A stretch of DNA of 7,485 nt from Clostridiales bacterium (GTDB taxonomy: Bacteria; Bacillota; Desulfitobacteriia; Desulfitobacteriales; Desulfitobacteriaceae): assembly GCA_027357125.1 (NCBI GenBank), contig DAHVVW010000093.1, positions 1 to 7,485 of the forward strand, read 5' to 3'. Below, piece after piece: positions 3,294 to 5,828 of this stretch (position 1 is its first letter; each line of letters opens with the position of its first letter). Under the pieces are notes generated by a model that was not told where the DNA came from, made no database searches, and was given only the letters and a program-made list of their open reading frames with translations. The translations under genes were made by a program, and so were the position numbers.

Positions 3294-3362
3294 CCGTATT
3301 CTGATGCATGGGCTCAACTAATGTTGCTTGGCCTGTCACTCCTGTCCATTTCCAGCGTACAC

Positions 3363-3390
3363 TATACTAGACAAGCAGGAAACGGGGTGA
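3363..3390 (+). promoter_or_regulatory. Candidate -10 element and ribosome site for the NYN gene
   Basis: TATACT (3363-3368) is a good -10 hexamer, but no convincing -35 sits 16-18 nt upstream (TCCTGT at best). GGGGTGA (3384-3390) is a strong ribosome site 4 nt before the GTG start and decides that start. Confidence 0.4.
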
Positions 3391-3394
3391 AAGA

Positions 3395-4216
3395 GTGAAA
3401 GCCATTGCGTTTGTCGATTACGAGAACATTTGGACCGGCATGCAGGAACGAGGGTACAAACTGGCACCTGAATTGCTCGTGCAGGCTTTGCAACAGTATG
3501 CCCAGCGGACGGACAAGGACTTATTGGCTATTTATCTCTTTGCCAATTTTGATCGCGAGGAGTTCTGGCGCACCCAGACTACCTTCGAAAAAACGAATGT
3601 ATTCACCAGACATGTGTATGGAAAAAACAATTACTCAAATACAGATTTGCGTCGTAATGCTGCAGATTTGGAGCTTATGCTTGAGGCTCTGGAGATTTTG
3701 CTGACACGGCCCTCTACGGTAGATGTCTTTGTATTATTAAGCGGGGATGGGGATTTCCTGCCTTTGATCAGGAAGATCCGGGCCTGGGGGAAAGAGGTTA
3801 GGGTTATCGGAGTGGATGGCAGTGTTCACCATTCCCTGCAGCCCTATTGCGAAAGTACGGGGATTGTCACCGAGATGCTCAGCTTTGGTTCGGATGAAGA
3901 ATATCACCCGGAAGCTGACCTGGAGCAGGCACTTGGGATCCTGGCGCAAATACAAATGCGTCTGCCTTATGTTGCTTCTACCAAGGCCCGCACCGCCCTG
4001 AGTGAGCGGCTGGCGCGGCCGGTAACCCAGGTTAAAGAGCTTATCCGCTATGCTTTACGTGAGAAAATTCTAATTGAACGTGAGCATTCCGATCCCAGTC
4101 TTCGTATCGGCAGGACGAAGATTTACCTTCTTAATATTGAGCATCCTGTTGTGCAGGCCAACCTCGGACCTCTGATCGAGGAAATAAGAGAACGGTACGC
4201 GAGGCTGGAACAATAA
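3395..4216 (+). CDS. NYN domain (PIN-like) putative ribonuclease with C-terminal winged-helix-like region
   Basis: A 273-aa protein. Residues 1-160 form a NYN/LabA-type PIN-like domain: AIAFVDYENIW with Asp8 and Asn11, NTDLRRNAADLELMLEAL with Asp91, VFVLLSGDGDFLPLI with Asp118 and Asp120, and KEVRVIGV. These acidic residues are those expected to bind metal in this nuclease superfamily, so single-strand RNA cleavage is a reasonable guess, but the substrate is unknown. Residues about 175-255 (LEQALGILAQIQM, ALSERLARPVTQVKELIRYALREKILIERE) look like a winged-helix or OST-HTH-like module, plausible for nucleic-acid binding. The GTG start at 3395 follows GGGGTGA. The gene stands alone between a terminator and a long hairpin, so it appears monocistronic. 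A regulatory role in RNA turnover is inference. Confidence 0.85.
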   Translation: MKAIAFVDYENIWTGMQERGYKLAPELLVQALQQYAQRTDKDLLAIYLFANFDREEFWRTQTTFEKTNVFTRHVYGKNNYSNTDLRRNAADLELMLEALEILLTRPSTVDVFVLLSGDGDFLPLIRKIRAWGKEVRVIGVDGSVHHSLQPYCESTGIVTEMLSFGSDEEYHPEADLEQALGILAQIQMRLPYVASTKARTALSERLARPVTQVKELIRYALREKILIEREHSDPSLRIGRTKIYLLNIEHPVVQANLGPLIEEIRERYARLEQ

Positions 4217-4315: not shown

Positions 4316-4340
4316 AGTCGGGCAGATATTCTGCCCGGCT
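4316..4340 (-). terminator. Hairpin downstream of the 82-aa ORF
   Basis: The stem CGGGCAG (4319-4325) with CTGCCCG (4331-4337), loop ATATT, extends by three more pairs including one G-U to 4316-4340. Read leftward it follows the 82-aa gene and is succeeded by a moderately T-rich run (TTTACTTAATT). The stem sequence GCCGGGCAG is shared with the hairpin downstream of the paralogue (4755-4776), so it seems to have been duplicated with the gene. Confidence 0.55.
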
Positions 4341-4407: not shown

Positions 4408-4656
4408 TTATTGACTCACGAAAGTAACACTGCGCAGCGGGATGCGTACTACAGGGCGGATGCCGTCAATTGGGGTGCCGATGTTGGAATGGAGCAGGGC
4501 GTTTGTCAGCAATGCGACTCCGTCTTGCAAACCGCCGAAGTTGCCCAACCAGAAGCCGGAGTCCATACCTACAGCCAATCTGGTCCCTATGGGATAGGTG
4601 TCAAACAAGCCAACAACAAAAGGAACGGGTGCGAATGGAACGCCAAACAAACTCAT
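4408..4656 (-). CDS. Small uncharacterised protein, paralogue A of a tandem pair (82 aa)
   Basis: I do not recognise this family. The protein is short and neutral-hydrophobic, starting MSLFGVPFAPVPFVVGLFD, with the core YPIGTRLAVGMDSGFWLGN, FGGLQDGVALLTN, and the end GTPIDGIRPVVRIPLR then SVTFVSQ. Gly, Pro and aromatic residues are frequent, Cys and Lys are absent, and there is no clear signal peptide. It is about 80 percent identical over roughly 65 residues to the protein at 4786-5043. Minus-strand coding is favoured because protein similarity in this frame far exceeds that of the long plus-strand frames, and because both copies have AAAGGGG about 9 nt before the ATG (4665-4671 here). The upstream leader with a hairpin is also conserved. 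A structural or spore-surface role is only a guess from composition and context. Confidence 0.7.
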   Translation of the reverse strand: MSLFGVPFAPVPFVVGLFDTYPIGTRLAVGMDSGFWLGNFGGLQDGVALLTNALLHSNIGTPIDGIRPVVRIPLRSVTFVSQ

Positions 4657-4664
4657 AAACCGTT

Positions 4665-4714
4665 ACCCCTTTCTCGAGATTGATTAGCCGCGTGATGCGG
4701 CTGCAGAAGATGAG
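4665..4714 (-). promoter_or_regulatory. Conserved leader hairpin and ribosome site, copy A
   Basis: The minus-strand order is CTCATCTTCTG (4704-4714), a hairpin AGCCGC-N5-GCGGCT (4686-4702), then GAGAAAGGGG as ribosome site. The same order occurs before paralogue B, while the bases of the stem differ but still pair, which suggests the structure itself is kept. Confidence 0.5.
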
Positions 4715-4751
4715 AGGAAAACGGCTTGGAATATCTGAGAGTAATATTATG

Positions 4752-4784
4752 TGCCCGGGCAGGTTTTCCTGCCCGGCATTTTTT
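4752..4784 (+). terminator. Strong plus-strand intrinsic terminator between the two paralogues
   Basis: The perfect 9-bp GC-rich stem CCGGGCAGG (4755-4763) with CCTGCCCGG (4768-4776), loop TTTT, extends through a one-base bulge to 4752 and 4778. It is followed by six T (4779-4784) on the plus strand only. Read leftward, downstream of paralogue B, there is no T tract, so its efficient direction is opposite to the gene it follows. Confidence 0.75.
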
Positions 4785-4785
4785 A

Positions 4786-5043
4786 TTATTGGCTGACAAA
4801 GGTGATATTGCGGAGCGGAATGCGCACAACCGGACGGATGCCATCAATCGGGGTGCCCACATTCGAGAACAACTGAGCGTTTGTCAGCAGAGCGACTCCG
4901 TCTTGAAGCCCGCCGAAGTTACCGCGCCAGAATCCCGAGTCCATCCCAATGAGGAGAAGAGCGCCAATGGGGTAGGTGTCAAACAAGCCCACGATGAAAG
5001 GTTTACAATAGGGATACCCCCACCACCCAGTACCAAAGCCCAT
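4786..5043 (-). CDS. Small uncharacterised protein, paralogue B of a tandem pair (85 aa)
   Basis: Paralogue of the 82-aa gene to its left; no known family recognised. The N-terminus differs (MGFGTGWWGYPYCKPFIVGL, rich in Gly, Trp, Tyr), while FDTYPIG, IGMDSGFWRGNFGGLQDGV, ALLTNAQLFSNVGTPIDGIR and PVVRIPLRNITFVSQ match copy A closely. It has a single Cys (13). Stop-to-stop spacing of the copies is 378 bp. The ribosome site AAAGGGG (5053-5059) precedes the ATG by 9 nt. It is the first of the pair in the direction of transcription, preceded by an approximately 140-nt leader if the sigma-K-like promoter at 5188-5218 is used. The variable, aromatic N-terminus with a constant C-terminal part suggests a shared assembly or binding surface with a variable face (inference). 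Confidence 0.72.
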   Translation of the reverse strand: MGFGTGWWGYPYCKPFIVGLFDTYPIGALLLIGMDSGFWRGNFGGLQDGVALLTNAQLFSNVGTPIDGIRPVVRIPLRNITFVSQ

Positions 5044-5480: not shown

Positions 5481-5540
5481 CAACATATAACAGTACGCAT
5501 GAATAAATATTTAGGAAATTTTAAGGAGGGACTTACTTCA

Positions 5541-5828
5541 ATGAACATTAAGCCTCTAGGAGATCGGGTTGTGATCAAGGCACTCCCGATGGAAGAAAAA
5601 ACAAAGAGCGGAATCATCATGCCTGATACTGCTAAGGAAAAGCCGCAGGAGGGAGAAGTCGTAGCTGTCGGACCTGGAAAGATAGAAAAAGGGGAGCGGG
5701 CTGCGCTTGATGTGAAAGCGGGTGACCGCGTGATTTATTCCAAGTATGCGGGCACGGAAGTCAAGTATGACGGCCAAGAGTACTTAATTCTGAAAGAGTC
5801 CGATATTTTGGCGATCGTTGGTGAATAA
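5541..5828 (+). CDS. groES: GroES, 10-kDa co-chaperonin
   Basis: GroES is the heptameric lid of the GroEL folding chamber in the cytoplasm. It is 95 aa, full length. Visible features are [11 protein letters not shown] at the N-terminus, the mobile loop around residues 17-34 with its hydrophobic contact GIIM (24-27), [10 protein letters not shown] (38-47), and [15 protein letters not shown] at the end. The start is the ATG at 5541, because AAGGAGGG (5523-5530) is 10 nt upstream. An in-frame ATG at 5499 would add 14 untypical residues that are encoded across the ribosome site, so it is rejected. It is the first gene of the CIRCE-controlled operon, 47 nt before groEL, and should be induced by heat or misfolded protein when HrcA repression is relieved. 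Confidence 0.98.

What the first reader, a model, noticed from the sequence alone, without database searches (positions are those of the whole stretch)
4408..5043. Tandem paralogous small-protein family of unknown function
Two adjacent minus-strand genes (82 and 85 aa) share a nearly constant C-terminal 65 residues (YPIG, MDSGFW, NFGGLQDGVALLTN, GTPIDGIRPVVRIPLR) but differ at the N-terminus. I know no family with these motifs. The constant core next to a variable aromatic N-terminus, plus a possible sporulation promoter, would fit a small structural protein such as a spore-surface component, but that is a guess.
Basis: partly seen in the sequence, partly recalled or inferred. Interest (0 to 1): 0.7.

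Follow-up and report, generated by a model that had tools for sequence, protein, structure and literature searches.

The report
Spore-linked proteins with Sm-like fold
These two neighbouring small genes belong to a family found, in the genomes searched, only in Desulfitobacterium-type bacteria and their order; the proteins are predicted to fold like the ring-forming Sm (RNA-binding) proteins, and most of the family genes examined carry the promoter pattern of late spore formation, so they are likely building blocks of the spore's outer layers, parts that are largely unknown in these bacteria.

Summary
Two adjacent minus-strand genes (82 and 85 aa, 79% identical over 78 residues) are real, conserved, and belong to a family without a Pfam or NCBIfam entry. 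A profile finds it in 31 of 82 genomes of the window's class (1-5 matches each) and in 7 of 398 genomes drawn across the phylum, all in the window's order.

The standard Sm/Hfq RNA-pocket signature is missing, lysine plus glutamate is about 1%, and the genome has an ordinary Hfq. I read the family as Sm-fold subunits made in the mother cell and likely built into the spore envelope, rather than RNA chaperones. Spore location, rings and absence of RNA binding are untested. In the window only the upstream gene has a strict promoter match.

The parts
4786..5043 (-). FAM1: 85-aa family member, predicted Sm-like fold (helix at residues 15-22, five strands between 29 and 84)
   Evidence: (ORF), AlphaFold models, fold searches
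4408..4656 (-). FAM2: 82-aa paralogue, 79% identical over 78 residues
5188..5215 (-). sigma-K-type promoter of FAM1: AC-N17-CATAACCTA, -10 element 153 bases before the ATG
   Evidence: enrichment over the family; FAM2 has no strict match
4755..4776 (.). 9-bp terminator-like hairpin just after the FAM1 stop codon, between the two genes (the scan lists it on the + strand, where the T run lies)
4319..4337 (-). 8-bp terminator-like hairpin after FAM2
3395..4216 (+). neighbour: NYN-domain protein (PIN-like nuclease family), 273 aa; found within about 10 kb of a family member in 7 of the 31 genomes that have one
   Evidence: (PF01936 E 2.5e-17)
3335..3364 (+). conserved promoter-like element of the NYN gene, GTCACTCCTGTCC-N8-CGTACACTA, related to the family's box but with CGTA for CATA in the -10

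Best explanation
The two genes encode small proteins predicted to have the Sm/Lsm fold that are likely made in the mother cell late in spore formation under sigma-K and likely assembled, as rings or stacked rings, into the outer layers of the spore. Shown: the genes are real, paralogous and conserved; 46 of 55 family genes have a sigma-K-type promoter pattern in front, as dpaA has in the same genomes; the canonical Sm RNA-pocket signature is absent from the alignment. Predicted: the fold. Inferred and untested: transcription by sigma-K, ring formation, a structural role in coat or exosporium, and lack of RNA binding. Proposed mechanism: the conserved core makes the barrel-to-barrel ring contacts, the short variable Gly/Pro/Phe-rich N-terminus (with cysteine in 15 of 55) links rings to each other or to other coat proteins, and several paralogues per genome give mixed rings or different layers.
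Against: FAM2 of the window has no strict promoter match, nor have its close relatives in G040 (L005, L030); in all 9 of 55 have none. Other genes at the loci carry the box more often than shuffles predict, so a single box is weak evidence. The box was partly fitted: A or G at the last base was allowed after the first test (25 of 55 with A only). In complete genome G007 the strict GTMAC pattern is not over-represented as a whole: 13 hits against 11 for the reversed control. hfq, the negative control, may often lie inside an operon, which makes it an easy one. No spore proteome or transcriptome was available. 18 of 45 genomes of the taxonomic family lack the profile match, and 13 of these 18 have a sigma-K gene over the cut-off, so the protein is not a general need of spores. 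Profile comparison with Hfq gives nothing, so common descent with Sm proteins rests on predicted structure alone.
Confidence: 0.5

Rival explanations
1. A divergent RNA-binding Sm ring active in the mother cell, likely working with the neighbouring NYN nuclease on late sporulation mRNAs.
For: Predicted Sm fold. NYN gene next to or within about 10 kb of a family member in 7 of 31 genomes, spread over 6 genera. NYN genes carry a related, conserved promoter element. Precedent: KapD, a ribonuclease held in the B. subtilis spore crust that acts on sigK mRNA (PMC11736430, abstract). Arginines 70 and 74 are kept in most members.
Against: No Sm2 Arg-Gly, no Hfq Lys-His (motifs recalled). Arg74 is lost in 5 of the 6 f2 and f3 rows of alignment A4, though the other f3 members L049, L054 and L056 keep it. 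Almost no lysine. NYN has a match in 60 of 82 genomes, the family in 31, so many NYN genes occur without it.
Confidence: 0.2
2. A soluble mother-cell or spore-core factor (enzyme cofactor, chaperone or germination factor) with an Sm-like barrel, not part of a spore layer.
For: Many sigma-K genes are not coat genes (established knowledge); dpaA, which has the same box, is an example.
Against: No catalytic-type invariant residues: invariant are Gly41, Ile75, Val83, and nearly invariant Phe21, Gly27, Gly33, Trp39, Leu53, Ala56, Pro76, which look structural. Low-complexity Ser-Pro-Phe and Asn-Glu-Arg extensions in some members fit a surface layer better.
Confidence: 0.2
3. A mobile or phage-derived multicopy gene with no spore role.
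For: Scattered copies, 1-5 matches per genome.
Against: No PHROG match at a useful E-value among 42 members (best 0.061); one promoter type kept across divergent flanks; purifying selection.
Confidence: 0.05

Closest known systems
Archaeal and eukaryotic Sm/Lsm proteins (SmAP1, Lsm2-8, SmF)
   Different: 6-25% identity in the listings; no Sm2 Ile-Arg-Gly (Ile-Pro instead); no sequence-profile match; sporulation-type promoter; bacterial
Hfq (PF17209)
   Same: Bacterial; Sm fold by established knowledge
   Different: No hhalign match, no Lys-His motif, very different composition; 44 of 45 genomes of the family have a separate canonical Hfq
sigma-K-dependent spore coat and crust proteins of Bacillus and Clostridioides
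   Same: Sigma-K-type promoter, small, lineage-restricted, several paralogues
   Different: No match to any family in Pfam or NCBIfam; spore location not shown
KapD-CotY of B. subtilis (ribonuclease embedded in the spore crust)
   Same: Possible parallel: late spore protein plus a nuclease gene with a related promoter nearby
   Different: KapD is a 3'-exoribonuclease (PMC11736430, abstract); the neighbour here is an NYN-domain protein; no interaction shown

Membership tests
Sm/Lsm superfamily | N-terminal helix and five-strand bent barrel | tested here: met
   predicted models only; PDB comparison
Sm/Lsm superfamily | Sm2 motif (Ile/Leu-Arg-Gly-Asn/Asp) and Sm1 Asn of the uridine pocket (motif recalled) | tested here: not met
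   alignments A2, A4: Ile75-Pro76-(mostly Ile/Leu), and usually Asp-Gly at the turn between strands 2 and 3; placement from the ranges of the fold alignment, by eye
Sm/Lsm superfamily | sequence-profile match to Pfam Sm-family models | tested here: not met
   no Sm-family model among the matches at E<=1 of 42 members
Sm/Lsm superfamily | hexameric or heptameric ring | not testable with these tools
   only monomers can be modelled
Hfq | Tyr-Lys-His-Ala-Ile-Ser motif and Hfq profile | tested here: not met
   hhalign probability 0.4% against 12 Hfq of the same taxonomic family; motif absent
DUF2642 (PF10842) | profile similarity | tested here: inconclusive
   hhalign probability 0.7%, but the DUF2642 alignment had only 3 sequences
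sigma-K regulon | -35 AC and -10 CATANNNTR at promoter spacing upstream of the gene | tested here: met
   46 of 55 family genes against 1.39 in shuffles; of the window genes FAM1 yes, FAM2 no; controls
sigma-K regulon | loss of transcription in a sigK mutant | not testable with these tools
   needs an experiment
spore coat/exosporium proteins | presence in the purified spore envelope | not testable with these tools
   needs proteomics or imaging

The most novel reading that the evidence does not exclude
An Sm-fold family devoted to the spore: several paralogous Sm-like proteins per genome, freed from RNA binding, form mixed rings or tubes that tile the spore surface of Desulfitobacterium-type bacteria and hold a co-regulated NYN nuclease, so that the fold that organises the spliceosome was reused as a building brick of a bacterial spore.
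Probability: 0.2. Interest if true: 0.85.

Novelty: new variant of a known kind. Interest (0 to 1): 0.6.

Why it matters
In bacteria the Sm fold is known chiefly as Hfq, an RNA chaperone (established knowledge). A multicopy Sm-like family under a sporulation-type promoter that lacks the RNA pocket would be a new use of the fold. Spore coats outside the Bacillus lineage are poorly known: a comparative study reports that many B. subtilis coat proteins have a narrow distribution and expects further, still unidentified coat proteins in other firmicutes (PMC3533761, passages). This family is a concrete, testable candidate for such a protein in sulfate-reducing and dehalogenating bacteria.

Tried and rejected
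Known families by sequence: Pfam, NCBIfam (best was a fructose PTS domain at E 0.083, far below cut-off), PHROGs and PDB sequences (best E 0.49) gave nothing usable. DUF2642, which shares a Val-Arg-Ile-Pro stretch to the eye, is not supported by hhalign. Hfq is not supported. FlgV was looked up as a possible non-RNA Sm protein; the paper says it is unrelated to Hfq (PMC11607428, passages), so it serves only as a warning against calling things Hfq. Other sigma factor patterns (sigma-A, E, F, G, H) with both elements were found in 0 or 1 of 55; the bare CATNNTA element was raised (25 of 55 against 14.4), which overlaps the sigma-K -10. The first motif test used CATANNNTA (25 of 55); G at the last position was allowed after seeing the one-mismatch table, so part of the rise to 46 of 55 is fitted; dpaA, which was not used for the fit, shows the same CATANNNTG ending in its matching loci. 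A paralogue tree resolved few forks (12 of 52 starred) and was not used. Relatives of the f2 protein P0136 are rare: one hit, 99% identical. Papers: PMC11736430 outline and abstract; PMC3789822, PMC3533761 and PMC11607428 passages; all others only as search listings. A search for Sm-like with spore and exosporium found 0 papers, for DUF2642 0 papers; this covers only the open-licence library.

What was counted: the 55 upstream regions are the distinct family proteins found by a pattern with at least 250 bases upstream in the loci held at that time; identical proteins count once, and copies without a locus, or missed by the pattern (such as the fused domain at L059 4305-4949), are left out. The information profile used 45 of the 55, all chosen because they have the box, so its -10 identity of 0.73 is largely by construction; only the flanks, the spacer and the first bases after the -10 inform. 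The dpaA control used the 30 loci that the tool returned of 45 genomes, the hfq control 20 of 45. The NYN set was 20 stretches that I chose plus five genes in the loci.

Full report
What is in the window. Gene order by reading translations: moaA, moaC, a MOSC-type gene, mogA, an NYN-domain gene (3395-4216, +; PF01936 E 2.5e-17), then the two genes in question on the minus strand, then groES (5499-5828, +) and groEL.

The observation. The genes at 4408-4656 and 4786-5043 (minus) are real. They are 79% identical over 78 residues. Codon-position changes are 16/11/44 and NG86 dN/dS is 0.18/2.31; antisense frames are not kept. Terminator-like hairpins follow each gene. There are 132 homologous clusters by single sequence and 219 by profile at E<=1, and the best Pfam match of any of the 42 scanned members has E 0.059.

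Distribution. With the profile, 31 of 82 genomes of the class match: 27 of 45 in the window's family, 1 of 3 in f2 (E 7e-4), 3 of 25 in f3 and 0 of 9 in f4 (counted). In a draw of 398 genomes over the phylum, 7 match, all in the window's family or order. Matches are 1-5 per genome, some in tandem, some divergent, some far apart. The two weak f2 relatives are supported by hhalign at E about 1e-5, probability 82%.

RNA pocket. The fold alignment runs from model 15-85 to 1i4k 3-72 with 68 pairs. If it is gapless at the C-terminal end, the Sm2 signature (Ile-Arg-Gly-Asn/Asp, recalled) falls on Ile75-Pro76-(Ile/Leu)77-(often Arg)78. Ile75 is invariant and Pro76 nearly so in 28 diverse members. The Hfq Lys-His pair is absent. 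Lysine plus glutamate has a median of 1.2% in 55 members, against 14.1% in the own genome's Hfq. A canonical Hfq is present in 44 of 45 genomes of the family, the own genome included. So these proteins are not a replacement for Hfq, and the standard pocket is gone. Binding of RNA by other residues is not excluded.

Promoter. In the 55 upstream regions, AC-N14..17-CATANNNTA is found in 25, against 0.8 (sd 0.9) in shuffles, while sigma-A, E, F, G and H patterns with both elements are at 0 or 1. Allowing G at the last base, which the misses suggested, gives 46 of 55 against 1.39 (sd 1.27, largest count in 200 shuffles 6), mostly 90-120 bases before the start. Of other genes of 120 aa or more at the loci 16 of 133 have it; five of these are NYN genes, one a fused family member and one an f2 relative, which leaves 9 of 126. 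With 200-base regions the numbers are 45 of 55 for the family, 29 of 30 for dpaA, a classical sigma-K gene (established knowledge), and 0 of 20 for hfq. In 45 regions aligned on the box, mean pairwise identity is 0.27 upstream, 0.32 downstream and 0.43 in the -35/spacer stretch; the 0.73 of the -10 is largely by choice of the regions. Information also stays raised for about 8 bases after the -10 and then falls. So shared ancestry of the paralogues alone does not explain the box. In C. difficile a sigma-K promoter is given as -35 AC with -10 CATATAAT (PMC3789822, passages). In the window FAM1 has the box at 5215-5188. FAM2 has none and lies behind a hairpin, and its close relatives in G040 (L005, L030) also lack a strict match, so this branch is either read through or uses a weaker promoter. 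The same pattern matches once more in the window, on the plus strand across the start of FAM1, which I take as chance. In the complete genome G007 the strict pattern GTMAC-N15..17-CATANNNTR has 13 hits, hardly more than the 11 of the reversed control, but among the 13 are the sites before the NYN gene, a family gene, a small membrane protein gene next to it, and dpaA. The sigma-K gene itself is over the curated cut-off in 28 of the 31 genomes with the family and 36 of the 51 without (counted).

Neighbours. An NYN gene lies within about 10 kb of a family member in 7 of 31 genomes (G000, G007, G041, G042, G049, G056, G061), but NYN has a match in 60 of 82 genomes. Of 20 NYN upstream stretches chosen, the 6 of f3 carry the strict box and the 14 of f1 do not. 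The -35 part, GTCAC...TGTCC, is found in 18 of these 20 and in the window; in 12 of the 14 from f1 it is followed by CGTANNNTR in place of CATANNNTR. Five further NYN genes, all five in the loci, have the strict box. Small membrane-type proteins, mostly with Asn-rich tails, recur beside the family (10 found in the loci; 1 with the CATANNNTA box).

Reading. The likeliest account is an Sm-fold subunit produced under sigma-K in the mother cell and built into the spore envelope. Inferred steps are sigma-K dependence, rings and location. Against it stand the missing box in 9 of 55 genes, FAM2 included, and the lack of any expression or proteome data. The main rival, an RNA-binding ring acting with the NYN nuclease, has a parallel in KapD, a ribonuclease embedded in the B. 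subtilis spore crust (PMC11736430, abstract), but lacks the expected residues. I put the structural reading at 0.5 and the RNA reading at 0.2; the fold and the promoter assignment of the family each at about 0.85.

Noticed in passing
window 3335-3364 and 3395-4216: The NYN gene has its own conserved promoter-like element GTCAC...TGTCC; in the sister family f3 it ends in a sigma-K-type CATANNNTR, in the window's family mostly in CGTANNNTR. It may be a late-sporulation nuclease.
   Followed up: partly
L059 6318-7197, L067 4903-5094, L076 4081-5134, L077 1663-2223, L078 7092-7367, L062 3395-3595: Recurrent small membrane-type proteins with an N-terminal stretch like 'ETELAVIIxLL' and mostly Asn-rich tails beside the family genes; no match over a curated cut-off in Pfam or NCBIfam for those tested.
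   Followed up: partly
L059 4305-6047: One genome has four tandem family domains, the first at the C-terminus of a 214-aa protein, followed by three small membrane-type proteins and preceded by an NYN gene.
   Followed up: no
L019 723-1139 and 1387-1713, L020 1483-1815 and 2022-2372: Family members with C-terminal Asn-Glu-Arg repeats, each next to a member with Ser-Pro-Phe repeats before the core.
   Followed up: no
L074 5384-5629: A family copy sits between genes that look like scpB and a run resembling ytfJ, spmA and spmB (recognised by eye, not tested), a sporulation-type neighbourhood.
   Followed up: no
L111: An unknown 78-aa protein (MSEECTKLPGSLIRINIPGG...) follows one of the 13 strict sigma-K-type sites of genome G007.
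   Followed up: no
L059 9334-10602, L067 10212-11468: A protein beginning like NFSVLGSAGGVAKAILSILNKSA, near family genes in two genomes of different families, has the sigma-K-type box upstream in both.
   Followed up: no
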